This document shows, in pieces, positions 39,924 through 62,159 of a stretch of DNA of 64,000 nt. The position numbers and the translations under genes were made by a program. Origin of the DNA: Candidatus Limnocylindrales bacterium (GTDB lineage Bacteria; Desulfobacterota; Binatia; UBA1149; CAITLU01); the NCBI GenBank assembly GCA_035571835.1, contig DATNBU010000038.1, forward strand, positions 1 through 64,000, in the 5' to 3' direction. Within the stretch, counting starts at the first letter, position 1. Each line of letters begins with the position of its first letter. The notes below the pieces were generated by a model. It was not told the DNA's origin and did not search any database. It saw nothing but the letters and a program-made list of their open reading frames with translations.

Positions 39924-41066
39924 TCAGTTCAGATCGTAAAGCGCGATGTCGAGCGGAAACGACGGGTCGGGTCCGCGCTTCGTGCTGCTGGTGGGAAAGT
40001 TCGGGGGAACGCCCGACTCGTCGAGCACGTACGCATCGATCCGGTTGATGCCGGCCTGCGAGACGTAAAGGATCCCGTCCTTGATCTCCATCTTCGACGG
40101 ATATGTCTCCGGATCTTCCTCGGTCCTGCTGAACGGAGTGTTGTGATTGAGCATTCCGTCGGACTCGATGTGGTAGAGGTCGATGCGGCCTGCGTTGTAC
40201 GCGGCAGCGTAAAGCAGGCCGTTCTCGATCAGGATGTCCTCGTAGTACTCCTCGGTCTCGGTGCGCGAGCTCTGGTCGGTCGGCAGGAATCCACCGGCGA
40301 CGAGCTTGTACGCGCGGATCGACTTGTCGCCCGCCGACGTGACGTAAATGATGTTGTTGTGAAAGACGAGGTCGTCGGGAAGCGCGATGCCGTCCTGCGG
40401 GCTCTGGTTCTCGGCATCGATCGGAACGTCGCCGTTCGGCTTCAGCAGGAACAGGTCGATGACTTCGCTGCTGCGCGCGCCGGCGTAAAGCGACGTGCCG
40501 TTGAATGCGAGTGATACGTAATCGCCCGGGATGCGGGCTTCGCCGCTGCCGGTGAACGATGGCGGAAGATCGCCGTCTTCGTCGAGCCGGAACGACTGGA
40601 CCCGGTTCAGGCCGGCGTCGGCCGAATAGACGACGTTGTTCTGCACTGCGATCTGGATCGGATCGGAGTTCTGATTGAGGATCGTCTCGGAAGTCGGGGA
40701 GTCCGGCAGCGAGCCGTCGGCGCCGAGCCGCATGGCGATGAGCTGCTTGTCGAGCGACGCGTAAAGGACACCGTTGGCAATCGCGAGACGCCGCGGGTTG
40801 CGCACGGAGATCGAGTCGAACGGCTTGCCCGGAAGCAGTCCGTCGGTGCCGAGCCGGTATGCATCGATGCGGTTGCCGCGCGACATCGCGGCGTAGAGCA
40901 CGACGTTTCCCGGAGGAGCCGTGGTCTGCGGTCCGGGAGTAAGAAAGGCCGACGTGCCGCTGCCGCTCGACCCTCCGCCGCACGCCGCAAGCCAGGCTGC
41001 CGAGACGAACAGGGCAGCGAATGTCGAAAAGCGAAGGACGCGGGAGCGGAGCGTGGAATACGGCAT
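39924..41066 (-). CDS. beta-propeller lipoprotein (lactonase-like)
   Basis: Starting at ATG 41066, the 380-residue protein has a signal peptide and lipobox (SAAWLAAC, then GGGSSGSG). The mature part is a series of propeller blades, each with a YAAxxxxNRIDAYRLGTDG-like strand set (seven expected), similar to the YncE/lactonase fold. It should be lipid-anchored and probably outward facing. A catalytic function cannot be inferred from sequence; scaffold or binding is equally possible. Confidence 0.78.
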   Translation of the reverse strand: MPYSTLRSRVLRFSTFAALFVSAAWLAACGGGSSGSGTSAFLTPGPQTTAPPGNVVLYAAMSRGNRIDAYRLGTDGLLPGKPFDSISVRNPRRLAIANGVLYASLDKQLIAMRLGADGSLPDSPTSETILNQNSDPIQIAVQNNVVYSADAGLNRVQSFRLDEDGDLPPSFTGSGEARIPGDYVSLAFNGTSLYAGARSSEVIDLFLLKPNGDVPIDAENQSPQDGIALPDDLVFHNNIIYVTSAGDKSIRAYKLVAGGFLPTDQSSRTETEEYYEDILIENGLLYAAAYNAGRIDLYHIESDGMLNHNTPFSRTEEDPETYPSKMEIKDGILYVSQAGINRIDAYVLDESGVPPNFPTSSTKRGPDPSFPLDIALYDLN

Positions 41067-41089
41067 GGCGCCGACGCTTAACCAAGGGA

Positions 41090-41134
41090 ACGTCGGCTGT
41101 CCAGCCGCATGGGGACGTCGGCTGTCCAGCCGCA
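41090..41134. repeat. 25-bp tandem hairpin repeat, two copies
   Basis: ACGTCGGCTGTCCAGCCGCA occurs at 41090-41109 and 41115-41134, separated by TGGGG. GGCTG/CAGCC inside each unit makes a small stem-loop. It lies in the divergent region between the propeller lipoprotein and THUMP genes, where regulatory sequence is expected. Confidence 0.75.
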
Positions 41135-41198
41135 GGCGCAGACAGGCTGTCCGCCACAGCGGCATTGCCCTCACGGCGACTGCCGTCATAATCCGCCG

Positions 41199-41756
41199 AT
41201 GCGCACCCGCGACGATGAAAGCTGGAACGTGCTCGCCATCGGTGCACGTGGCGAGACCGGCAAGGCGCTCGGGCTGCTCGGCGAAGTCGGGCGTTTCCGT
41301 ACCGGCGGATATCCGCAGGTTCTGATCGGCAGCGTCGCGCGTCCGCGCGGTGACGCCGCGCTTCTCGACGGCATCGACGGCCTCGTCGGCAATCCGGAAC
41401 GCACAGCCGGCATCATCGACCGCATCGTTCCCGTCGAGGAAGCCGTCTCGTTCGCGGGCGACGACGTGACCGAAACGCTGTGCGAAGCGCTCGAGTCGCG
41501 TGCCTCGCGACTGTGCGGAAAGTCGTTCTACGTGCGCGTCCATCTGCGAGGGCTCAAGGGCCGCATCGAGCATCCCGCCGTCGAGCGCGCGCTCGGCGAT
41601 TTCCTGTCGGAGTTTGCGGCCCGCGCCGGCGAGCCGCCGAACGTCTCGTTTCGCGATCCCGACGTGGTCGTGGTTGCCGAAGTCGTCGGACGCCGCGTCG
41701 GCTACGCGTTCCTCGGACGAGACGAGCGCAATACCGATCTGGTGCGCGTGAAATAA
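41199..41756 (+). CDS. THUMP-domain protein, TAN1-like
   Basis: The 185-residue protein contains a THUMP-type RNA-binding domain: VPVEEAVSFAGDDVTETLCE, LCGKSFYVRVHLRGLKGR and FLSEFAARAGEPPNVSFRDP, ending in VVVVAEVVGRRVGYAFLGRD. It has no methyltransferase or deaminase domain, resembling archaeal/eukaryotic Tan1-type helpers that present tRNA to an acetyltransferase. In bacteria, lone THUMP proteins are less common. The start is ATG 41199. Confidence 0.75.
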   Translation: MRTRDDESWNVLAIGARGETGKALGLLGEVGRFRTGGYPQVLIGSVARPRGDAALLDGIDGLVGNPERTAGIIDRIVPVEEAVSFAGDDVTETLCEALESRASRLCGKSFYVRVHLRGLKGRIEHPAVERALGDFLSEFAARAGEPPNVSFRDPDVVVVAEVVGRRVGYAFLGRDERNTDLVRVK

Positions 41757-41783
41757 TCGGCTTTCCGAGTCGCGGGCCGCGTG

Positions 41784-42833
41784 TCAGTCGGGCTCGGGGG
41801 CGAGCATGACCTTGATCGCACCACTTTTCTTGTCCGACGCGGTTTCGAACGCCGCCTGCACATCGGTAAGCGGAAAGGTATGCGTCAGAAGGCCGCGCAG
41901 CGCAGTGGCATGGGCCTCGATGCATTCGAGGCCCAGCTCGAAGTCGGCAATTCCGGTCGGCGGGCGGTTGTAGACCATCGAGCCGACGATTCGCACTTCC
42001 TTGATCAGCAGCACGCCGGGATCGAACACCGGCGTCTTCTCGAAGACACCGATGACGACGATCGTGCCGCCGCGCGCGACGGCGAGCATGCCGTCGGCGA
42101 CAGTCGTCGCGTCGCCGCCGACGGTTTCGAGCACGACGTCCGGCTTCTCACCGGACAGCTTGAGGCGTGCCGGATCGAGCACCTCGTCGACGCCGATCGC
42201 TTCGGCGACTTTCTTCTGCTGCGGATGACGGGCGCTGATCGCGACGTACGAGGCGCCCAGATGTCGCGCAGCCGCAGCGGCAACCAGCCCGATCGTTCCG
42301 GCGCCGAGCACGAGCACGCGCGAATGCTCGCCCACGCCGCCGAGCCGCGCGGCATGCACGGCGACGGCCATCGGCTCGGCCAGCGCGCCGAGCGCGTAGT
42401 CGAGCGAATCCGGAAGCGGAAACAGCGCGTAGTCGGGCACGACGAGCGAAGACGCCATGCCGCCCTGGAGCGTCACGCCATGCACCGCGAGCCGGCCGCA
42501 CAGATGGTAATTGCCGGACACGCAGTGCCGGCACTCTCCGCAGCGCCTGATCGGCTCGATGGCGACGCGGTCGCCTTCGCGAACGCTGGTCACGCCAGGG
42601 CCGATCGAATCGACGACACCGCTCATTTCATGACCGGGACATACGGGCGGCAGCGGCGCGTGGCCCCGGAACGCGTGCAGGTCGCTGCCGCAGATCCCGC
42701 AGCGCCGGATGCGGACGCGCGCTTCTCCGGCGGCCGGCGCGGTCTCGGCAACCTCGTGAACGTGGATCGTGCCGGCGGACAGGTATCGTGCTTCGATCAC
42801 GGCGTTGGTTCCTATCGGTGAGGGTGTCTCCAC
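41784..42833 (-). CDS. zinc-dependent alcohol dehydrogenase (MDR family)
   Basis: The 349-residue medium-chain dehydrogenase has catalytic-zinc ligands Cys45 (CGICGSDLH) and His68/Glu69 (PGHEMSG), a complete structural zinc loop (Cys98, 101, 104, 112 in RRCGECRHCVSGNYHLC), and the NAD(P) motif LGAGTIGLVA. This fits the threonine/sorbitol/butanediol dehydrogenase branch; the substrate is not decidable. It diverges from the downstream secreted lipoprotein across 200 bases. Confidence 0.9.
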   Translation of the reverse strand: METPSPIGTNAVIEARYLSAGTIHVHEVAETAPAAGEARVRIRRCGICGSDLHAFRGHAPLPPVCPGHEMSGVVDSIGPGVTSVREGDRVAIEPIRRCGECRHCVSGNYHLCGRLAVHGVTLQGGMASSLVVPDYALFPLPDSLDYALGALAEPMAVAVHAARLGGVGEHSRVLVLGAGTIGLVAAAAARHLGASYVAISARHPQQKKVAEAIGVDEVLDPARLKLSGEKPDVVLETVGGDATTVADGMLAVARGGTIVVIGVFEKTPVFDPGVLLIKEVRIVGSMVYNRPPTGIADFELGLECIEAHATALRGLLTHTFPLTDVQAAFETASDKKSGAIKVMLAPEPD

Positions 42834-43036
42834 GCAATGTCCCGGGGCCTCAGCGCCCGCAGAATGCGTCCGGACTCACAGCCGGATTGCAGGGCCGACG
42901 CCTGCAGCGTTGCGAATACTTTGCCCTCGCCAGAGCCCGTGCGGTAGTTTAGGATCCCCCCGCGCTTTTCAACACGGGCCACGGAGAGGAAGGGCGGACT
43001 TCCTCGAGCGGCCGTGCAAGACAAAGGAGAGATCGA

Positions 43037-44566
43037 ATGACAGGTTTTTGTCGTCGCTTCGGATCGTTCGCGATGGTTCTGGCGTTTGGGGCAATGCTGC
43101 TGAGCTGCAGTGGAAGCGGGGACGGTGACGGCGGAGGCGGCGGCGACGACCGGGTTCGGCTCTTCTTCGGCATCAACAACGACGGCGGCTGCAAGAGCCT
43201 GGTTTTCGACGTCGATGTCGCCGACGCCCAGGCCGTCATCGAGCGCAACGGAAACGCCGTCGATTGCACGCTCAATGCGGCGCTGACCAACGACGGCTGC
43301 GACGCGACGTTCACGCTCATCAACAATAACGACACGCTTCGCGTATCGATCACGGGATGCACGATTCCCGCGGTCACCAATGTGTTCCTCTGCGACTTCG
43401 TCGACGCCGACATCTCCGAGCTGACCGACCAGACGGTGGCTACGTGCAGCTGCAAGAACAACGGCTGCGACACCACGCCTCCGGTCTGCATCAGCGAAGT
43501 GCAGGACCCGGGGTCCTGCGAAGACTGCGACAACCACATCGACGACGACGGCAACGATCTCATCGATTGCGCCGATCCGAACTGCGAGCATTCGCCGCTG
43601 TGCGGCAACGTCGGGGAGACGTCCACGACGACGTCTTCGACGTTCATCGACGTCATCACGTCGTCGACGACGACGACGACGCTCGAGCCCACGGAAACCT
43701 GCACGCTGACGTACCGGATGACGACGGACGTTACGGCAGGAGGCCTGTCGTGGGAGACGGACTACGCGGGCACCGACGGCGGTTTCCGCGGCAAGGGCAG
43801 TGCCGTCAAGTGCGACAGCATCGTCCCGGGCGCACTCGCGGCGTTCTCGGACAACGACCATGCCCGGGTGCTTTCGTCGGGGCTCGTCAGCCTCAGCGGC
43901 ATTGACGGGCCGGCCGATCTCGTCGAGTGCAAGTTCGACGTGGTCACCGAGCCGCTGATCTCGGACTTCGACATCACGGTCACCGAAGCGACCGACGTCG
44001 ACGTGAATCCGATCCGGCCTTTCCCCGCGATCATCATCAAGAGCCTGGACTGTGTGCCGGTCACGACGACGACCACCGAAGGAAATACGACGACGACGAT
44101 CGACGGCGGCGGCACCACCACGACGATCCCCGGCGGCGGCACGACCACGACGATTCCCGGCGGCACCACGACGACGACGCTTCCCGGCCCGACCGACACG
44201 TACTCGATCACGTTCCGTCTCAATAGCGCGAGCGCGCCGGTCGGTGCGCTGCAGTTCAGCGTCAACTACGCGGGTGCGCCGGGTGAGTTCGAAGGCACCG
44301 GCGGCGACGTGACGTGCACGGGCGGCATCGAAGGCGCGCTGTTCGCGCCCAACGACATCGATGCCAGCCGCAAGCTGTCGCTCGGCATCATTGCGCTCGA
44401 CGCGTTCAGCGCGCCGGTCAACGTGGCCACGTGCAAGTTCGTCGCGAACGATGAGATCGACGTGCCGACTCCGGCCGACTTCATCATCACGATCGACGAC
44501 GCGACCGATGCGGACGGAGCCGACGTGACGGTCGGGGTCGGCGCGGTGGTGACACCGGTGCACTGA
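43037..44566 (+). CDS. surface lipoprotein with paired cohesin-like domains and Thr-rich linkers
   Basis: The 509-residue protein has AGGAG upstream of its ATG, a lipobox (AMLLSC, then SGSGDGDGG), a Cys-rich N-terminal domain (CEDCDNHIDDDGNDLIDC), then two β-sandwich domains of about 100 residues each (starting TYRMTTDVTAGGLSWETDYA and SITFRLNSASAPVGALQFSV). Both read like cohesin/type-B Ca-binding β-rolls (VxxGALxxxVNY...G). Thr-rich linkers (TTTTTLEP, TTTTIPGGG repeated) join them. It should be lipid-anchored and displayed outside. A strong hairpin follows. Confidence 0.75.
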   Translation: MTGFCRRFGSFAMVLAFGAMLLSCSGSGDGDGGGGGDDRVRLFFGINNDGGCKSLVFDVDVADAQAVIERNGNAVDCTLNAALTNDGCDATFTLINNNDTLRVSITGCTIPAVTNVFLCDFVDADISELTDQTVATCSCKNNGCDTTPPVCISEVQDPGSCEDCDNHIDDDGNDLIDCADPNCEHSPLCGNVGETSTTTSSTFIDVITSSTTTTTLEPTETCTLTYRMTTDVTAGGLSWETDYAGTDGGFRGKGSAVKCDSIVPGALAAFSDNDHARVLSSGLVSLSGIDGPADLVECKFDVVTEPLISDFDITVTEATDVDVNPIRPFPAIIIKSLDCVPVTTTTTEGNTTTTIDGGGTTTTIPGGGTTTTIPGGTTTTTLPGPTDTYSITFRLNSASAPVGALQFSVNYAGAPGEFEGTGGDVTCTGGIEGALFAPNDIDASRKLSLGIIALDAFSAPVNVATCKFVANDEIDVPTPADFIITIDDATDADGADVTVGVGAVVTPVH

Positions 44567-53915: not shown

Positions 53916-54884
53916 GTGGAATCCGCCCAGATCTCCGGAAAAGTCTTTCGCTTCCTGTCGACGATGCATCCGTCGCTGTCCAAGCCGGAGCGCAAGCGCT
54001 ACGCCGAGTTCGATCCCGACAAATGGTATCCGTGGACGCCTGATATCGCGGGCGAGTTTACCGACCTCATGCGCCGGTCACCGCGCGACACCAGTTTTGC
54101 ACGCGGCCTCGCCTACGCGGCCACCAAGGGTCTTCCCGAGGATTCGAAGCTGTCTGCGACCGACGTCGTTGCCGGTCTTGCATCGCTTCCGGCAGCGTTC
54201 GTCGGTCCGGCCGGCAGCGGTTTCGAAGTCAGCATGGAACGGCCGGGCTACGCGGAGGTTTTCTACCGGGGCATGCCCGGGTTCTCGAACGTCTGCATCG
54301 CGATCGCCGGAGAGCTCACGCAAAGGCTGCAGGCCGTCGGCGCGCGCGGTCTCGACGTGCGTCACGGCGAAGGCTGCCGGCTGCAGGGTGCAGACGCGTG
54401 CCGCTTCGAAGTGCGCTGGTCGGCCGATCCCGGCGACCGGCACGCACCGGTGAACCCGCCCGAAGCCGCCGAAGCGCGCCGCCCCGAGCGGCCGGTCGAG
54501 CGTCCTTCGTTCGAACGATCCGCCGAGCCCGCGCCTGCGCGTGCCGCAGCCGCAACGATGCTGCGCACCGAGGATGTCTCGTCGCGAGCGGTCCCGAGCG
54601 GACGCCCCGTCGCTCCTCCGCCAAGGCCGATCTCGGCTGCACCGGTGATGCCGCAGGCGTCCGCCGGAGGCTCGGCCGAAGATCTCTTCGAGCAGCTTCG
54701 CTCGCGCCTCGTCGATGCCGAGCGCCAGAGCGCACGGCATTCGGAGCTGGAGTCGCACATTGCAGCACTCGACGCGCGTGCCGGAGAGCTCGAAGCGGCG
54801 CTCGCGCATGCCGAAGCCGAAGCGAATGCCGCACGCGGCGAGCTCGAGGAGCTGAAGCGCCGCATTCGCGATCTGGTCGGCTAG
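53916..54884 (+). CDS. V4R-like domain protein with C-terminal coiled coil
   Basis: Starting at GTG 53916, the 322-residue protein has an N-terminal α/β domain (residues 1-165) ending in GLDVRHGEGCRLQGADACRF, resembling the V4R/heme-NO-binding-type sensor fold of myxobacterial proteins. A Pro/Ala/Arg-rich linker follows, then a strong coiled coil (SAEDLFEQLRSRLVDAERQS, HSELESHIAALDARAGELEA, 250-320). It probably dimerises and transmits a signal or assembles a complex. No catalytic residues are visible. Confidence 0.65.
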   Translation: MESAQISGKVFRFLSTMHPSLSKPERKRYAEFDPDKWYPWTPDIAGEFTDLMRRSPRDTSFARGLAYAATKGLPEDSKLSATDVVAGLASLPAAFVGPAGSGFEVSMERPGYAEVFYRGMPGFSNVCIAIAGELTQRLQAVGARGLDVRHGEGCRLQGADACRFEVRWSADPGDRHAPVNPPEAAEARRPERPVERPSFERSAEPAPARAAAATMLRTEDVSSRAVPSGRPVAPPPRPISAAPVMPQASAGGSAEDLFEQLRSRLVDAERQSARHSELESHIAALDARAGELEAALAHAEAEANAARGELEELKRRIRDLVG

Positions 54885-54888
54885 TCTT

Positions 54889-55125
54889 CTACGGTACGGC
54901 GCAGACGTCGCTGATCGCGGACGAGTACGCGCCGTTCGAGAAGCAGTCGGCGGTTGAGAACGCCAGTTCGCCGCAGTCTCCATCGGCGGCGCCCTCCGCA
55001 CCGAACGCCAGCGTCATTTTCATCGGGATGTAGGCCGGCGAGGTGCCGTAGCCGCCGCCCGCGGTGCCAGGAAAAAGAAAGGCAAAACCGGCGATCGCGA
55101 GAAGAGCGGACAGCGGTCGCTTCAT
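54889..55125 (-). CDS. small secreted Cys-containing protein
   Basis: Starting at ATG 55125 with AGGAGG upstream, the 78-residue protein has a clear signal peptide (PLSALLAIAGFAFLFPGTAG). The mature part contains three Cys (DGDCGEL, ADCFSN, VCAVP) that could form disulphides. I do not recognise the family. It converges on the coiled-coil gene with a 4-base gap. Confidence 0.65.
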   Translation of the reverse strand: MKRPLSALLAIAGFAFLFPGTAGGGYGTSPAYIPMKMTLAFGAEGAADGDCGELAFSTADCFSNGAYSSAISDVCAVP

Positions 55126-55360
55126 ACCAGAGCCCTCCTTTTGTTCGCCTCGAAGCGCAGCCCGTGCCGCCTTTTCCGGCGCAACACAGTCGGCCGGGGG
55201 CGTATCAGGCAGCCAGGCAATGGGCGATCGCGACCGCCCCTGTGACATCTGTCGCTGTCCGGACGTGGGCCAGGGGGTTTCCCGGTCGCCGTCGACGCGA
55301 TGTGACCAAGTGCTGTCCGGTCATTGCCGCGACACCGCGCGGCGTGGTACTCGACGGTCG

Positions 55361-57280
55361 ATGCACCTCGTATCCCGGACCGTAATCGCGTCGGCCGCTG
55401 CTCTCCTCGTCTTCTCGACGACACCGGCCGAAGCCTGGATGAAGCGGATCGATCCGACCGGACTTGCCAAAGGAGGCCGCGGCTGGTCGGCCCCGCGAGT
55501 GTCGGGGATCGATAACGCTGGCGACCTGATCCTCGTCGGCGAGCCGTTCCGGCTCGCCAAGTACTCGGGTGTCAGCGGCGCGCTGCTCTGGCAGACGACC
55601 TCGCCGGCGAACGCTTTCGGACACACGCTCGAGATCGATGCGGCGAACGACATCTTCCTCGTCAACGGAGTGAAGATCGCCAAGTTCGACGGAGCGAGCG
55701 GCGCCGAGCTCTGGGAGCTCACGCTTCCGAACTACACGTCTTTCTACTCGGTCGCTCTCGATCCATCCGGGGACCTTTTCGCACTTTCCGGCGTATGGGA
55801 TGGTCACGAGTCGCTAATCTCGATCCGCAAGCTCGACGGGACGAGCGGAAGCGAGGTCTGGAGCACGAGCCTTCCCGGCCTTCGCGCACCCGGATACCGG
55901 TATTGCTGCGGGGCGCCGTTCGATGTGCACGATCTCTCCGTCACGCCCGACGGGAACGTCATCGTCGCCATGTACAAAGAGCGGATCACGCCGGAGTACG
56001 ATCTCGAGTATTCGCCGCTCTTCCAGGGTTTCGACGGTGACGACGGAACGCAGGAGTGGCAGTACGATCTCGACGCATTCAACACCGCCGATCCTCCAAC
56101 CGTGATGGGTCTCGTCGGTCCGTCCAATCGCTTCTTCGTCCGGCTTTATTCGAACGGTTCTCGTCTGCTCGCCATCGATGCGGCGACCGGTGCGCCGGTG
56201 TGGAACACGCCCATCGTCTCGCCGACGACCGTGTTCCAGTATCTTTCGGAGATTCTCCTCGACCCTTCGGGCGACGTCGTCCTCGTCGGCGAGTCGTACT
56301 CGTATGACGGCTACGGGACGAATTATCTCTACGCTGCGAAGTACGCGGCGAACGACGGCACGCGAACCTGGCTGAGCGAGATTCGAGGCGACGATCTGCG
56401 ACCGGGCCTTACCGAGGCCGACAGCAATTCGCGCGAGCGCGCGGTCACAGCGGCAGCCGATGCCGCCGGCAACATCTATGTCGGAGGCTCGCTCTGGGAC
56501 GGCGAGGATGACCTCGCGGTGCTTCGCCTGCGGGCGGCCGACGGCGCCACCGAATGGTGGAGACTGGCGGATGGCTCGACGCCGCCTCCCTACGGCGGCT
56601 GCGACATCGTCAGGGACATCTTCGCAGGAGCCGACGGCCACGTCCGCTTCATTGGAGAGATCGGCTACGCCGACATCGGCATCTGCTCGACGGTCGTCTC
56701 TTCGCTCGACTCGGCAAACGGCGCGCTCGACGACATGCCGATCGGGATCGATCGCCTGACGATCCAGAACTCCGCCAATCCCGCCGCGACGAGGATCTCG
56801 CTTCTGTCCTCCGGCATCAGCACGTTCCCGCCCGGTCCGGACAACATCGGCGATCCGCGGTGCGACGCGCCCGGCGGCGGCGGCGCGAATCTTTCCGTCT
56901 TCAGCACGGGAGGCGCGACCTCGAATGTTTCGATACCGCTACCGTGCGAGAACTGGATAGCGCTCGGCGATCCCGCGCATCCGATCGGTTACGAGTACGA
57001 GGATCGCGAGCAGGTCAACGGCCCGTGCAACTCCATCGTGCTCTACGACAAGTTGCGCAAGGGTCGGCTCTCGGTACGCTGCTCCGGCGCGAACCCGGCC
57101 TCCCCGCTCGACTACGAGCTCGACGCGATGGGGCAGGGCAGCGTGGCGCTTCGCCTCGAGCTGCCGGGAACCGTCTACTGCGCCGAGGCGACTCCGTCGT
57201 CGAGCTCGATCGGAGCGGACAGCCCCGCGTCGTTCCGCGCCACCAAGGGATCGGCTCCGCTCGCTTGCCCCGCCCCCTGA
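55361..57280 (+). CDS. secreted PQQ-like β-propeller protein
   Basis: I start it at ATG 55361, where a signal peptide follows (IASAAALLVFSTTPAEAWMK). The 639-residue protein consists of eight or so propeller blades with recurring GxxxLWxTxxP/SGxxxW patterns (GVSGALLWQTTSPANAFG, GTSGSEVWSTSLPG, TWLSEIRGD), as in PQQ-type propellers, but without the tryptophan-docking motifs that bind PQQ. Three Cys-rich stretches (PYGGCDIVRD, RCDAPGGGGAN, CENWIALGDP) are unusual. It is probably a secreted binding or adhesion protein. Confidence 0.75.
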   Translation: MHLVSRTVIASAAALLVFSTTPAEAWMKRIDPTGLAKGGRGWSAPRVSGIDNAGDLILVGEPFRLAKYSGVSGALLWQTTSPANAFGHTLEIDAANDIFLVNGVKIAKFDGASGAELWELTLPNYTSFYSVALDPSGDLFALSGVWDGHESLISIRKLDGTSGSEVWSTSLPGLRAPGYRYCCGAPFDVHDLSVTPDGNVIVAMYKERITPEYDLEYSPLFQGFDGDDGTQEWQYDLDAFNTADPPTVMGLVGPSNRFFVRLYSNGSRLLAIDAATGAPVWNTPIVSPTTVFQYLSEILLDPSGDVVLVGESYSYDGYGTNYLYAAKYAANDGTRTWLSEIRGDDLRPGLTEADSNSRERAVTAAADAAGNIYVGGSLWDGEDDLAVLRLRAADGATEWWRLADGSTPPPYGGCDIVRDIFAGADGHVRFIGEIGYADIGICSTVVSSLDSANGALDDMPIGIDRLTIQNSANPAATRISLLSSGISTFPPGPDNIGDPRCDAPGGGGANLSVFSTGGATSNVSIPLPCENWIALGDPAHPIGYEYEDREQVNGPCNSIVLYDKLRKGRLSVRCSGANPASPLDYELDAMGQGSVALRLELPGTVYCAEATPSSSSIGADSPASFRATKGSAPLACPAP

Positions 57281-57307: not shown

Positions 57308-58078
57308 ATGGCAGTTTCTTCCTCGCAACGCGCGGCGACGCTGCGCATCGTGCTCCTTCGTCCGAAGCGCGGCGCCAACGTCGGCGCCGTCTGCCGCGCA
57401 ATGAAGAACATGGGAGCGGGCGATCTCGTCATCGTCGGCGGCGAGTACGACGGCGAGGAAGCCCGTCGCACCGCCGTGCACGCCGGCGACGTCTACGAAT
57501 CGATCCGCACCGCCGCGACGCTCGACGAAGCGATTGCGCCCGCGACGTTCGTGGTCGGCACCACTTCGCGAACCCAGCCGTGGAGCATCCCTGTCGTGCC
57601 GATCGACCAGGCCTTTGCCGAGGCCCGGGCGCACGGGCAAGCCAGCATCGCGCTCGTGTTCGGCCCCGAAGATCACGGTCTCGACAACCAGCAGCTCGCC
57701 CGCTGCCACCGCCTTGCCTTCGTGCCGACGGCAGACGCGTACGCATCGCTCAACCTCGCGCAGGCGGCGGTCGTCTGCCTGTACGAATGGCTGCGCTCGA
57801 GCCGCAACGAAGCCGGCAGCATGCCGCGGTCCGGCGATGCCGCAGCAGCCGATGACCGGACGCAGTCGGCCGCGCTCGCCGATCTCGAAGACGTGCTCGA
57901 AGAGATCGGATTTCTCGAGGGCGACCAGGCCGAGCGCGTGATGGCGACGATCCGCTCGATCCTGACTCGCAGCGGACTCGACGAGCGCGAGGTCGGCATT
58001 CTTCGCGGCATCGCGCGGCAGATCCGCTGGGCCGCTCGCCGCGAGCCGGCGCGCAAGCGGGCGGCGACGATCAAGTGA
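57308..58078 (+). CDS. TrmJ-like tRNA 2'-O-methyltransferase (SPOUT)
   Basis: The 256-residue protein has the SPOUT TrmJ motifs: LLRPKRGANVGAVCRAMKNM, LVFGPEDHGLDNQQLARCHR and AYASLNLAQAAVVCLYEWL, with the C-terminal helical extension (VLEEIGFLEGDQAERVMATI) typical of TrmJ (about 245 residues). It methylates the 2'-O of nucleotide 32 in tRNAs in known members. It lies 27 bases after the propeller gene. Confidence 0.9.
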   Translation: MAVSSSQRAATLRIVLLRPKRGANVGAVCRAMKNMGAGDLVIVGGEYDGEEARRTAVHAGDVYESIRTAATLDEAIAPATFVVGTTSRTQPWSIPVVPIDQAFAEARAHGQASIALVFGPEDHGLDNQQLARCHRLAFVPTADAYASLNLAQAAVVCLYEWLRSSRNEAGSMPRSGDAAAADDRTQSAALADLEDVLEEIGFLEGDQAERVMATIRSILTRSGLDEREVGILRGIARQIRWAARREPARKRAATIK

Positions 58079-58217: not shown

Positions 58218-61007
58218 GTGAATCGCTCGATGTTCGCGCTGGCCAGGCGGCCCCGACTGTCGCTGATCGTCATGGTGGCGCTGACGCTCGTTGCGCTGGC
58301 GGGCATCACGCGCATCGGCTTCGACGGTTCCCTCGCGTCGCTGAGCGTCCCCGACGATCCCGCCCGGCTCTACAACGAACAGGTCCGCAAGGAATTCGGC
58401 GACGAAGAGATCGGCATCGCGCTCGTCGAGAGCGCGAACGTCTACACGCCCGAGAACATCGCCGCGCTCCGCGACCTGACCGACCGCCTCGCCAAGGTTC
58501 CGGGCGTAACCCGCACGCTCAGCATCACCAACGCTTCGGATCCGGTCGCCGACGTCTTCAATCCGCCGGCGCTGCTCGAAGCGGGCCCGGTCACGGCGGC
58601 GAGCGTCAAGGCACTTCAGGAGCGGGTCAAGGCCAACCCGATCTACGTTCCCAACCTCGTCGCTGCCGACGGGCAGGCTGCGGCAGTCACGGTGTTCTTC
58701 AAGAACGCGGTCACGACCGACGACGAAGCTGTCGTCGACCACGCGGTCCAGGACGTGATCGACAGCTACAAGGGCGACGCGAAGATCCATTACACCGGGA
58801 TGTCGCACATCCGCGTGCAGGCGGTCGAGCGCATGCAGAGCGACCTGCTCGACTTCCTGCCGGCAAGCCTGCTGCTGATGGCGTTCGTGCTGTACGGCAT
58901 CTTCCGTTCGATCCGGGCGACGCTGCTGCCGCTCGCGGCGCTCGCGATCAACGTCGGCTGCCTGATCGGGCTCATGGGATGGGCGGGCGAGCCGATCACG
59001 CTCGCGACGCTGGTGCTTCCGTCGCTGCTTCTGGTGATCGGCGGCTCGTACGCGATCCACATCGTGGATGCGTACCTCGAGCTCATCCGCAAGCCCGAGT
59101 CGGCGACGCTGCTTCCGGAAGAGATCTTCGGCCGCGTGCTCGACGAAGTCGCGCTGCCGGTGTTCGTCTCGGCGGTTACCAATGCGATCGGATTCGGATC
59201 GCTCGCGATTCATCCGATTCCTGCGATCGCGGGACTCGGAAAGTTCGCGGTGCTCGGGATCGCGGTCGTCACGTTCGGCTGCGTGCTCGGCATCCCGCTC
59301 GCGCTGCTCGCAATGCCGGGCCGCAAGATCGTCCACGTGCAGAAGGAAGGCGAGGAGGCGGCCGACGAACCGGCCGGCGTCGGCATGCCGTGGCTCGAGC
59401 GCGTCGTGCAGCGCATCGGCGCGATCTGCGTCGATCACCGGCTGAAAGTCCTGACCGGCGCGGCGATCGTGACGGGGATTGCCGCGTACGGCGCGATGCA
59501 GGTCCAGGTCGACACCGACTTTCTCAAGGCGTTCCGCCCCGGCTCACCGGTGCGCGAAAGCTTCGATGCGATCCAGCACAAGCTGGCCGGTCCGAATCCG
59601 ATCTCGGTCGTGATCAGCGGACCCGAGCCCGGCTACTTCCGCGACATCGCGGCGCTGCGCCGCGTGAAAGACTTCCAGACATTCGTCGAAGGGCTGGACG
59701 GCGTCGACGAGAGCCTGTCGCTCGTCGACTACCTCGACGAGCTCGACCTCGGCCTTCAGAACGCCGGCGGCGAGATGATCCTGAACGAAGCGACCGGCGA
59801 GGTGATGGAGTCGCCGCCGCCGAAGAGCTTCTGGAAAGATCCTGAAAAGCAGCTTCCCGCCGTGATCCAGCTGGTCACGGCCAATCCGCGCTCGTTCTCG
59901 AGCGTGGTCGACAGGAACCTGCAGCGTCTTCACATCACGCTTCGCACGTCGCTGACCGGCTCGCTCGAGACGTCGGCGCTCGTCGAGAAGGTCAAGGCTT
60001 ACGCTGCCGAAGCGTTCCCGCGCGGCGTCGACGTGCAGATGACCGGAACGCTGGTGGTGATGGCGTCGATCTCCGACCGGATCCTGCAGGGTCAGGTCGA
60101 GAGCACGGTCGTCGCGTACGGAATCATCTTCGTGCTGCTCGCGTTCATGTTCCTCTCGCTGCGGGTCGGCCTGATGGCGATGATCCCGAACGTGATCCCG
60201 AACGTCGTGTTCTTCGGGGTGATGGGTTTCGGCGGCATCGAGCTCAACCTCGCGACCAGCATCATTGCCGCCGTCGCGCTCGGCATCTCGGTCGACGACA
60301 CCGTGCACTACATGGCGCGCCTGAACCGCGTCGTGAAGACCACCGGCACGCAGCGCGAGGCGCTGCTCGCGACGCTTCATCTCGTGAGCCGGCCGGTCAT
60401 CGCGACGACCATCACGCTGGCCGCCGGATTCATGGTCATGGTGACGTCGAGCTTCGTCATCATCTCGACGTTCGGATGGCTGACGGCGCTGACGATGATC
60501 GCGGCGCTCTTGTGCAACCTGTTCCTGGTGCCCGCCATCCTTGCCACGGTGCCGGTGATCAGCGTGTGGGATCTGGTCTCGTCGCGCCTCGGTCCGAGCC
60601 CTCACCTTACGATTCCGCTGTTCGAAGGCCTCGGGCGCCTCGGCGTGCGCCTCGTCGTGCTGCTCGGCCAGCTCAAGACGTTCCGCAGCGGCGAGTACAT
60701 CGTGCGTCGCGGCGAGGAAGGCCGCGAGATGTACCTGGTGCTGACCGGCGACGGGCAGGTGCAGCTCGATCACGGCGTCAACATTCCGCTTCCGCGCGGC
60801 GGCATCGTCGGCGAGATGGCGCTGCTGCGCCGCGCGCCGCGCGGCGCCGACGTCGTCGCGTCGAGCGATCTCGACGCTCTGGTGATCGACGAGGATTTCC
60901 TGCGGCGCCTGCGGATCCGCTACCCGCGTTTGGCTTCGAAGTTTTTCCTTAATATCGCCCGCATCCTCAGTGACCGGCTCGACGTGGCCAACCGGCGCGT
61001 AGGCTGA
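58218..61007 (+). CDS. MMPL/RND-family transporter with C-terminal cyclic-nucleotide-binding domain
   Basis: I start at GTG 58218 (AGGTGGAG just upstream). The 929-residue protein has 12 predicted membrane segments in two halves, each with a large exported loop, and MMPL/HpnN-type motifs (LLPLAALAINVGCLIGLMGW, GIELNLATSIIAAVALGISV-DDT). Residues 805-929 form a cNMP-binding domain: SGEYIVRRGEEGREMYLVLT, GGIVGEMALLRRAPRGADVV (phosphate-binding cassette with Glu and Arg kept). This fusion links lipid/small-molecule export to cAMP or cGMP. The substrate is unknown. Confidence 0.87.
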   Translation: MNRSMFALARRPRLSLIVMVALTLVALAGITRIGFDGSLASLSVPDDPARLYNEQVRKEFGDEEIGIALVESANVYTPENIAALRDLTDRLAKVPGVTRTLSITNASDPVADVFNPPALLEAGPVTAASVKALQERVKANPIYVPNLVAADGQAAAVTVFFKNAVTTDDEAVVDHAVQDVIDSYKGDAKIHYTGMSHIRVQAVERMQSDLLDFLPASLLLMAFVLYGIFRSIRATLLPLAALAINVGCLIGLMGWAGEPITLATLVLPSLLLVIGGSYAIHIVDAYLELIRKPESATLLPEEIFGRVLDEVALPVFVSAVTNAIGFGSLAIHPIPAIAGLGKFAVLGIAVVTFGCVLGIPLALLAMPGRKIVHVQKEGEEAADEPAGVGMPWLERVVQRIGAICVDHRLKVLTGAAIVTGIAAYGAMQVQVDTDFLKAFRPGSPVRESFDAIQHKLAGPNPISVVISGPEPGYFRDIAALRRVKDFQTFVEGLDGVDESLSLVDYLDELDLGLQNAGGEMILNEATGEVMESPPPKSFWKDPEKQLPAVIQLVTANPRSFSSVVDRNLQRLHITLRTSLTGSLETSALVEKVKAYAAEAFPRGVDVQMTGTLVVMASISDRILQGQVESTVVAYGIIFVLLAFMFLSLRVGLMAMIPNVIPNVVFFGVMGFGGIELNLATSIIAAVALGISVDDTVHYMARLNRVVKTTGTQREALLATLHLVSRPVIATTITLAAGFMVMVTSSFVIISTFGWLTALTMIAALLCNLFLVPAILATVPVISVWDLVSSRLGPSPHLTIPLFEGLGRLGVRLVVLLGQLKTFRSGEYIVRRGEEGREMYLVLTGDGQVQLDHGVNIPLPRGGIVGEMALLRRAPRGADVVASSDLDALVIDEDFLRRLRIRYPRLASKFFLNIARILSDRLDVANRRVG

Positions 61008-61067: not shown

Positions 61068-62159
61068 ATGCCGCGTGCCGCCGTCGTTTATCAGAAGGAC
61101 CAGCCGATGAAGGTCGAACAGGTCGTGCTTCGCCCGATCGGCGAGCACGAGGTGCTGGTTCGCGTCAAGGCGTGCGGCGTCTGCCACAGCGACCTTTCGG
61201 CGCTGAACGAATTCTTCGCGTGCCCGACGCCGGTCATTCTCGGCCACGAAGCGGCCGGCATCGTCGAGGCCGTCGGCGCCGCCGTGACGAACGTGGAGCC
61301 GGGCGATCATGTCGTGGCCGCGTGGTCGCCGGCATGCGGCGAGTGCCGCTTCTGCAAGTCGGGACGGACGCACCTGTGCAACCTGTCCGACGATCCGACG
61401 TCGCGCGCGATGGACCGCGCGTCGGCCGGCGGAACGCCGGTCGCGTCATTCCTCGGTGTCGGCGGCTTCGCCGAGCAGATCATCCTCGCCGACAACGCGG
61501 TGATCCCGATCGACAAGTCGATGCCGCTCGATCGCGCGGCGCTGCTCGGCTGTGCGGTCATCACCGGATACGGCGCGGCCCGTTACGCGGCCGAGGTCCG
61601 CAGCGGCGACGACGTGGCGGTATTCGGATGCGGCGGCGTCGGGCTCAACATCATTCAGGGCGCGCGCCTTGCCGGCGCGAAGACGATCATCGCGATCGAC
61701 CTCGACGACGGCAAGCTCGAGACCGCGCGCAGTTTCGGCGCGACGCATACGCTGCGCGGCGACGCCGAGAACCTGCACAAGCAGATCCGCGCGCTGACGC
61801 AGGAACGCGCCGGCCTCGACTTCGCGTTCGAGGCCGTCGGCAATCCCGAGATCGCCCGCATCGCGTTCCTGTCGATCGCCAAGGGCGGAGAGGTGATCCT
61901 CGTCGGCATCGCGCACATGAAAGAGAAAGTGTCGCTGTCGCAGATCGCCGCGGTCACGCAGGAGAAGGGCATGCGCGGCACGACCAACGGCTCGGCCGAT
62001 TCGTGGAAGACCGTGCCTCTGCTGATCGAGCTCTACAAGAAGAAACAGCTGATGCTCGACGAGCTCGTCTCGCGCACGTACACGCTCGACCAGATCAACG
62101 ACGCGATGGCCGACCTTCGCAGCGGACGCAATGCCAGGGGCGTCGTGCTGATGGACTGA
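61068..62159 (+). CDS. zinc-dependent alcohol dehydrogenase (class III/arylalcohol type)
   Basis: The 363-residue MDR enzyme has Cys36 (CGVCHSDLS), His60/Glu61 (LGHEAAGIV), the structural loop Cys90/93/96/104 (CGECRFCKSGRTHLC), and NAD motif FGCGGVGLNIIQGA. This matches the Zn-dependent long-chain/aryl-alcohol dehydrogenase branch. AGAGGAGCT precedes the ATG. It follows the MMPL gene by 60 bases and precedes a secreted protein by 23 bases. Confidence 0.93.
   Translation: MPRAAVVYQKDQPMKVEQVVLRPIGEHEVLVRVKACGVCHSDLSALNEFFACPTPVILGHEAAGIVEAVGAAVTNVEPGDHVVAAWSPACGECRFCKSGRTHLCNLSDDPTSRAMDRASAGGTPVASFLGVGGFAEQIILADNAVIPIDKSMPLDRAALLGCAVITGYGAARYAAEVRSGDDVAVFGCGGVGLNIIQGARLAGAKTIIAIDLDDGKLETARSFGATHTLRGDAENLHKQIRALTQERAGLDFAFEAVGNPEIARIAFLSIAKGGEVILVGIAHMKEKVSLSQIAAVTQEKGMRGTTNGSADSWKTVPLLIELYKKKQLMLDELVSRTYTLDQINDAMADLRSGRNARGVVLMD

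What the first reader, a model, noticed from the sequence alone, without database searches (positions are those of the whole stretch)
58218..61007. MMPL/RND transporter fused to a cyclic-nucleotide-binding domain
The C-terminal 125 residues keep the phosphate-binding cassette (GEMALLRRAPRGADV), so the pump could be gated by cAMP or cGMP directly. Hopanoid-type (HpnN) and other MMPL transporters normally lack such a domain. This would be an unusual way to couple lipid export to a second messenger.
Basis: partly seen in the sequence, partly recalled or inferred. Interest (0 to 1): 0.78.

Follow-up and report, generated by a model that had tools for sequence, protein, structure and literature searches.

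The report
Cyclic-nucleotide-sensing MMPL pump family
A bacterial membrane pump that probably moves oily molecules carries a built-in sensor of the kind that binds the signal molecules cAMP or cGMP, and the same pairing is found in many distantly related bacteria, which suggests that cells can switch such a pump with a second messenger.

Summary
Window 58218-61007 encodes a 929-aa protein: an MMPL/RND pump followed by a complete cyclic-nucleotide-binding domain (CNBD), both above Pfam cut-offs and confidently modelled. It is no accident of one genome: 27 of 39 genomes of its class, its own included, have the fusion, and so do 69 of 80 loci from titled genomes, under 12 phylum labels. The phosphate-contact Arg is kept in 61 of 61 aligned proteins and the ribose-contact Glu in 59 of 61; the CNBD is more conserved than the pump in 57 of 60. 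Outside the window's clade, a LolA-like gene (35 of 55 loci) and a DUF1302-like barrel gene (24 of 55) lie beside it; in the window's clade 0 of 31. In Desulfospira a cyclase gene heads that gene run. The genome has 21 cyclase-domain matches. HpnN membership is not met. Best reading: cAMP or cGMP gates a hydrophobe-exporting pump. Binding, gating and substrate are inferred, not shown. Six literature searches showed no description of it. A new variant of known parts.

The parts
58218..61007 (+). MMPL/RND pump fused to a C-terminal cyclic-nucleotide-binding domain, 929 aa
58218..60557 (+). MMPL/RND transporter part (residues 1-780)
   Evidence: PF03176 in two stretches; AlphaFold2 model of the whole protein pLDDT 90.3; Foldseek best match MmpL5, E 6.4e-25
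60294..60308 (+). Asp693-Asp694 and His697, probable proton-relay residues (role recalled from RND pumps, not tested)
   Evidence: D693 in 60 of 61 and H697 in 60 of 61 aligned proteins
60606..61004 (+). cyclic-nucleotide-binding domain (residues 797-929)
   Evidence: PF00027; own model pLDDT 89.6; VIA-align Z 19.0, rmsd 1.7, 128 aligned to T. thermophilus CRP 4ev0, and Z 17.9, rmsd 2.0, 131 aligned to GlxR with cAMP 3r6s
60798..60860 (+). phosphate-binding cassette (residues 861-881), with Glu866 and Arg875
   Evidence: R875 61 of 61, E866 59 of 61, A877 60 of 61
60924..61001 (+). C-terminal helix (residues 903-928), in the place of the CRP dimer helix
   Evidence: helix 903-928 of the full model and 109-134 of the CNBD model
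57308..58078 (+). TrmJ/YjtD-family RNA methyltransferase gene, conserved upstream neighbour
   Evidence: TIGR00050 above cut-off; its cluster is found in 8 of 29 loci compared, this one included
61068..62159 (+). zinc alcohol dehydrogenase (nearest NCBIfam model NDMA-dependent, below cut-off), 60 bases after the pump
   Evidence: directly downstream also in L028-L031
62881..63957 (+). MaoC/mesaconyl-CoA-hydratase-like gene, conserved downstream neighbour in order-level relatives (frame listed from 62653; 62881 taken as start)
   Evidence: PF19315 E 6.7e-22; its cluster is found in 8 of 29 loci compared, this one included

Best explanation
The protein is a proton-driven MMPL/RND (HAE3-like) exporter of a hydrophobic molecule whose cytoplasmic C-terminal CNBD binds cAMP or cGMP. 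Binding in the cassette moves the hinge and the C-terminal helix and thereby shifts the pump between a restrained and an active state, as in other CNBD-controlled channels and enzymes. The messenger is made by class III cyclases, which are numerous in this genome and in a few relatives lie beside the pump gene. Shown here: both domains, their predicted folds, the kept binding residues, the breadth of the fusion, the partner genes of relatives. Inferred: nucleotide binding, gating and its sign, proton drive, and the substrate.
For: Both domains above Pfam cut-offs. Cassette Arg 61 of 61 and Glu 59 of 61. CNBD more similar than pump in 57 of 60 comparisons with the window protein; 93% against 70% to the same-genus relative. 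CNBD model matches cAMP-bound CRP-type domains and SthK. 21 class III cyclase-domain matches in the genome, of which 12 pass a crude three-motif check. Genomes with the fusion hold more cyclases than those without: median 12 (n 27) against 2 (n 11), P 8e-5; per Mb P 0.001; in a size-matched subset (14 against 6) P 0.02. Cyclase gene within 2.5 kb of the fusion in 6 of 103 unique loci, three of them on the same strand: heading the gene run in Desulfospira L094 and in L127, and directly downstream in L211, a relative of the window type. LolA-like and DUF1302-like partners in relatives, as in the hydrophobe exporter AmeABCD (PMC6394551, abstract and passages). Bd1971, with a very similar cassette (FGEMALIDNQNRSA), binds cAMP and cGMP and is activated about 8-fold (PMC6717892, passages).
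Against: No binding or transport was measured. The cyclase association is confounded with genome size (rho 0.75) and kinship; 10 of the 11 fusion-free genomes also have at least one cyclase match. Cyclase adjacency is only 6 of 103 with P from 0.001 to 0.15 by the cyclase density assumed, and 0.09 by inner against outer flank; three of the six are on the opposite strand. The window copy itself has no cyclase, LolA-like or DUF1302-like gene beside it in the stretch examined. Its family has Gly where 54 of 61 members have Thr or Ser after the Arg, and two of 61 members (L101, L106) lack the Glu.
Confidence: 0.67

Rival explanations
1. The CNBD serves mainly as a dimerisation or docking module (CRP-like C-helix pairing, or contact with a partner), and nucleotide binding is incidental or structural, not a switch.
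For: The C-terminal helix is long and conserved (N912 60 of 61, R920 57 of 61); no ligand data exist; no cyclase gene was found in the flanks of most loci.
Against: A pure scaffold need not keep the phosphate-contact Arg in 61 of 61 and Glu in 59 of 61. In the parasite PKG alignments shown, the third CNBD, whose cassette does not follow the signature, scores 7-10 bits against this profile while the others score 43-56.
Confidence: 0.15
2. The domain senses a ligand other than cAMP or cGMP, for example cCMP, cUMP or an unrelated small molecule, and so couples the pump to another signal.
For: The CNBD fold is used for other ligands: CooA binds haem and another regulator chlorophenols (PMC2246266, passages); PycTIR with cUMP is among the structural matches (Z 15.3, rmsd 2.9, 130 aligned); Gly876 in the window protein departs from the usual Thr or Ser.
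Against: The cassette is of the usual form across the family, and the survey passages say that CooA has a non-canonical one.
Confidence: 0.12
3. The pump is a hopanoid exporter of the HpnN type with an added domain.
For: Same superfamily; HpnN 5khn is among the structural matches (rank 42, E 1.3e-18).
Against: HpnN models score 75.9 of 751.85 and 33.5 of 1100 bits; MmpL structures rank well above HpnN; no hopanoid gene among the neighbours examined.
Confidence: 0.03

Closest known systems
HAE3-type RND exporter AmeABCD of Castellaniella defragrans (PMC6394551; abstract and passages seen)
   Same: MMPL/HAE3-like inner-membrane pump; many relatives of the window protein sit with a LolA-like periplasmic protein and a DUF1302-like barrel, like AmeB and AmeA
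   Different: AmeD (787 aa) is not described in the passages as carrying a CNBD; the window copy has neither partner gene beside it; AmeC was not sought here
Hopanoid transporter HpnN
   Same: RND superfamily fold
   Different: Far below the HpnN model cut-offs; no CNBD in HpnN (recalled)
Bd1971, cAMP-activated c-di-GMP phosphodiesterase of Bdellovibrio (PMC6717892; passages)
   Same: CNBD of CRP type with almost the same cassette, controlling a fused output domain
   Different: Output is a soluble EAL enzyme, and the CNBD is N-terminal
SLC9C1, animal sperm Na+/H+ exchanger with a CNBD (PMC10602139; abstract and outline seen)
   Same: Transporter stimulated by cyclic nucleotide through a cytoplasmic CNBD
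   Different: Other transporter fold (recalled), animal, also carries a voltage sensor
SthK and MlotiK1, bacterial cyclic-nucleotide-gated channels
   Same: Membrane protein with C-terminal CNBD; SthK is the best Foldseek match of the CNBD model
   Different: Channel, not pump
MFS transporters fused to CNBDs (review PMC10710835; passages)
   Same: Regulatory CNBD recruited by a bacterial transporter
   Different: Different transporter superfamily; the passages seen name no RND or MMPL fusion

Membership tests
MMPL/RND transporter | Pfam MMPL above gathering score | tested here: met
   112.2 bits, cut-off 20.5, two stretches
MMPL/RND transporter | RND fold | tested here: met
   Model pLDDT 90.3, pTM 0.83; best Foldseek matches MmpL5 and MmpL4, E 6e-25 and weaker
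HAE3 subfamily (TIGR00921) | Model score over curated cut-off | tested here: not met
   210.6 bits, cut-off 351.9; best NCBIfam match all the same. Called HAE3-like only
HpnN hopanoid transporter | Model score over curated cut-off | tested here: not met
   75.9 of 751.85 and 33.5 of 1100 bits
HpnN hopanoid transporter | Hopanoid genes nearby | tested here: inconclusive
   None among the neighbours scanned; the genome was not searched for hopanoid genes
Cyclic-nucleotide-binding domain | Pfam PF00027 above gathering score and CRP-type fold | tested here: met
   51.2 bits, cut-off 27.5; Z 19.0, rmsd 1.7, 128 aligned to 4ev0
Cyclic-nucleotide-binding domain | Glu and Arg of the phosphate-binding cassette | tested here: met
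   Present in the window protein; R 61 of 61, E 59 of 61 in alignment A2
Cyclic-nucleotide-binding domain | Binds cAMP or cGMP | not testable with these tools
   Needs protein
AmeABCD-like envelope export system | Pump gene beside LolA-like and DUF1302-like genes | tested here: not met
   Window clade: 0 of 31 loci for either partner; other fused loci: 35 of 55 LolA-like, 24 of 55 DUF1302-like. The 30% paralogue in the same genome has a LolA-like gene and a contig-cut frame like the DUF1302-like ones
AmeABCD-like envelope export system | AmeC-type (COG4447) periplasmic protein | not tested
   Not searched for
Nucleotide-gated transporter | Transport changes with nucleotide | not testable with these tools
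   Needs experiment

The most novel reading that the evidence does not exclude
A widespread, old family of second-messenger-gated envelope export machines: a class III cyclase, a LolA-like carrier, an MMPL-CNBD pump and a DUF1302-type outer-membrane barrel act as one pathway, and together with CNBD-controlled phospholipases (a patatin/NTE-CNBD gene lies next to a cyclase in this genome and directly upstream of the pump in a myxococcal locus) let cAMP or cGMP remodel the lipid content of the outer membrane without transcription.
Probability: 0.3. Interest if true: 0.82.

Novelty: new variant of a known kind. Interest (0 to 1): 0.6.

Why it matters
Bacterial cAMP is known mostly as a transcriptional signal through CRP (recalled). 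A conserved pump that carries its own cyclic-nucleotide sensor would be a direct, post-translational route from second messenger to envelope export, and a handle on the role of the many class III cyclases in Binatia and other phyla. Desulfospira joergensenii DSM 10085, with cyclase, LolA-like, pump and barrel genes in one run, makes it testable.

Tried and rejected
Rejected: chance fusion or frameshift artefact (same frame in many genomes). Rejected: HpnN. Left weak: cyclase adjacency as proof, since 6 of 103 loci is only mildly above expectation under some densities. PDB sequence searches with two conserved neighbours of unknown family (window 53916-54884 and L048:11051-12670) found nothing at E 0.01, and Pfam and NCBIfam gave no family above cut-off for them. 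A first check of cyclase motifs read several minus-strand matches on the wrong strand; it was redone. The tree is a quick one with long branches, needs at least 4 changes of the CNBD label (2 forced by well-supported branches) and cannot fix the number of origins; its script ended in an error after the tree was printed.

L077 is counted as fused though a contig end leaves only the start of its CNBD. In one search genome G035 was set aside (partial match), G018 (two frames) and G004 (two internal stops) were counted as having the fusion, and the counts were typed by hand. In one search the membership of the window clade was typed by hand from the tree. Loci are cut at contig ends, so neighbour counts are lower bounds; only 3 to 4 candidates per genome were scored, under strict E-values. 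Start codons of frames in other genomes were not verified.

Full report
What is there. The frame at 58218-61007 (+) encodes 929 residues. Pfam finds MMPL (E 3.3e-32) and, at residues 820-899, cNMP_binding (E 1.2e-13), each above its cut-off. Against NCBIfam the best model is HAE3 (210.6 bits, cut-off 351.9, so not a member by that test), and the two HpnN models are far below cut-off (75.9 of 751.85; 33.5 of 1100). A phmmer search of PDB sequences gives PKG, SthK and PKA domains for the C-terminal part and NPC1, Patched and RND pumps for the rest.

Structure. An AlphaFold2 model from 61 aligned family members has mean pLDDT 90.3 and pTM 0.83. Foldseek ranks mycobacterial MmpL5 and MmpL4 first (E 6e-25 and weaker), with HpnN at rank 42. 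A separate model of the CNBD (pLDDT 89.6) best matches SthK by Foldseek and T. thermophilus CRP by VIA-align (Z 19.0, rmsd 1.7, 128 aligned), then GlxR with cAMP (Z 17.9, rmsd 2.0, 131 aligned). A shared fold shows no function by itself.

Is the nucleotide site intact? In alignment A2 (the window plus 60 of the 69 fused loci among L060-L139) the cassette Arg is kept in 61 of 61 and Glu in 59 of 61; the exceptions are L101 and L106. The residue after Arg is Thr or Ser in 54 of 61 but Gly in the window protein. The CNBD is more similar than the pump part in 57 of 60 comparisons with the window protein; with the same-genus relative it is 93% against 70%. This is what a domain under functional constraint would show. 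Bd1971, whose cassette reads FGEMALIDNQNRSA, binds cAMP and cGMP, and either raises its activity about 8-fold (PMC6717892, passages).

How widespread? The window's class is Binatia: G011, of the same order, has a contig of the same length as that of L061, whose title names Candidatus Binatia (inference). Of 39 genomes of the class examined, the window's own included, 27 have the fusion, 11 do not, and one is unclear. The genome has a second, 30% identical fused pump at C37:203910-206576. It has 13 MMPL-family matches in 10 frames, of which two carry a CNBD match. Of these 80, 69 encode the fusion, 10 lack the CNBD, and one (L078) was not picked up by my frame filter although its tblastn match spans residues 264-927. 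Phylum labels of fused rows are Binatota, Myxococcota, Thermodesulfobacteriota, Pseudomonadota, Verrucomicrobiota, Kiritimatiellota, Acidobacteriota, Planctomycetota, Deferribacterota, Spirochaetota, Omnitrophota and Rokuibacteriota; many are metagenome bins, so single assignments may be wrong. The fusion is patchy: 19 of 297 genomes sampled from the phylum have a match at E 1e-90 that reaches the CNBD (G018 in two frames; a twentieth genome, G088, has a match that stops before it), and 6 of 194 from the order of Desulfospira at E 1e-130. These strict limits miss distant members. On a quick tree of 85 fused and 17 unfused pumps the label needs 4 changes (shuffled mean 16.1, 0 of 500 as low), so the pairing is old and mostly inherited, but the number of origins is open.

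Surroundings. Some relatives of the same order keep TrmJ upstream and an alcohol dehydrogenase, a MaoC-type hydratase, a GcvT-like protein and a protein of about 540-570 residues of unknown family downstream; some also have a CMD-family gene, a TetR regulator and acyl-CoA dehydrogenases further up. This looks like a locus for turnover of a lipid or other hydrophobic compound; that is inference. Outside the window clade the picture changes: of 55 unique fused loci, 35 have a LolA-like gene within 400 bases on the same strand and 24 a DUF1302-like barrel gene within 2 kb; in the window clade 0 of 31 have either. The identities rest on PF17131 in members tested and on DUF1302 matches just above cut-off in two members; the Desulfospira barrel itself has no Pfam match and is assigned by similarity. 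The window genome's other fused pump has a LolA-like gene and a contig-cut barrel-like frame beside it. The same kind of set, AmeABCD, raises the tolerance of Castellaniella defragrans to monoterpenes and lowers Nile Red accumulation (PMC6394551, abstract and passages), and Pseudomonas putida DUF1302, DUF1329, periplasmic-protein and efflux-transporter genes share a Tween 20 growth phenotype (PMC10866462, passages). So a hydrophobic substrate is likely, but the window copy may have changed partners or use them in trans.

Where would the signal come from? The genome has 21 class III cyclase-domain matches, one of them a weak fragment; 12 of 21 pass a crude motif check for both metal Asp motifs and the Asn-Arg motif. 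Cyclase matches occur in 38 of 39 genomes. Fusion-bearing genomes have more (median 12, n 27) than the others (median 2, n 11; P 8e-5). Density per Mb gives P 0.001 and a size-matched subset P 0.02, but cyclase number tracks genome size (rho 0.75) and kinship is not removed. A cyclase gene lies within 2.5 kb of the fusion in 6 of 103 unique loci, three on the same strand, and farther out in 2 closely alike loci; expected by chance 1.1 to 3.5 depending on the density assumed, P 0.001 to 0.15, and 0.09 for inner against outer flank. The individual cases are telling. In Desulfospira joergensenii DSM 10085 (L094) a PAS-cyclase, a LolA-like protein, the pump and the barrel are four consecutive genes: the pump and barrel frames overlap by 4 bases, and the cyclase and LolA-like frames as listed overlap by 20, though the LolA-like start is unverified. 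In a Methylocystaceae bin (L127) a cyclase precedes the same three, 432 bases before the LolA-like frame. In L211, a 39% identical pump is followed 99 bases later by a cyclase with TPR repeats on the same strand.

A wider network. The genome has 15 CNBD matches. Four further proteins that I scanned carry the CNBD with a patatin-type phospholipase, an MscS channel, a glutaminase and a PP2C phosphatase; the phospholipase gene lies 100 bases from a divergent cyclase gene. In the myxococcal locus L086 a CNBD-patatin gene ends 61 bases before the frame of the fused pump on the same strand. Two CNBD-bearing proteins that may act on lipids in one run fits a lipid response to a cyclic nucleotide.

Literature. 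Six searches of the held open-access library looked for the fusion. No paper holds 'MMPL' with 'cyclic nucleotide-binding' or with 'cNMP', and none holds all four terms. Searches were looser; only 20 of 79 and 20 of 223 papers were listed, and none of the listed titles describes it. The one paper with both 'RND transporter' and 'cyclic nucleotide-binding' is a review that mentions CNBDs on MFS transporters, with 'RND transporter' only in a reference title. The 2007 survey of CNBD architectures has no occurrence of MMPL in its text (PMC2246266, passages). Subscription papers and domain databases were not searched, so the pairing may well be listed in a domain database.

Verdict. Real, conserved, and probably a nucleotide-regulated hydrophobe exporter; new as a described combination so far as searched, built from known parts. 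Confidence in gating 0.67; substrate identity remains open.

Noticed in passing
L051:692-4532 (G000 contig C2, about 40691-44531): A class III cyclase gene and a CNBD-patatin phospholipase gene lie back to back 100 bases apart in the window's genome.
   Followed up: partly
L086:862-5536: In a myxococcal bin a CNBD-patatin/NTE-like phospholipase gene lies directly upstream of the MMPL-CNBD gene on the same strand.
   Followed up: partly
L050:2325-4211, L052:2358-4685, L051:9268-10554 (window genome): Further CNBD fusions in the same genome: glutaminase-CNBD, MscS-CNBD and PP2C-CNBD.
   Followed up: partly
G037, G017, G038: Three genomes of the class hold 48, 35 and 30 class III cyclase-domain matches, a rich repertoire.
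   Followed up: no
window 53916-54884 and L048:11051-12670: Two conserved neighbour genes (322 and 540 aa) have no Pfam or NCBIfam family above cut-off and no PDB relative at E 0.01.
   Followed up: partly
window 55064-57280: A gene with a PQQ_2/BamB-like repeat domain lies between the upstream conserved gene and TrmJ here; in L029, L032, L033 and L035 these two neighbours are adjacent.
   Followed up: no
L196 (G423:C157:5000-24000): Beside one fused pump lie two related pumps that lack the CNBD (44-45% identical to the Desulfospira query, one with an internal stop), which looks like loss of the domain after duplication.
   Followed up: no
L037, L038, L040, L046: In one family of the class the fused pump is followed by a conserved 571-aa gene with an SMC/RecN-type N-terminal ATPase match.
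   Followed up: no
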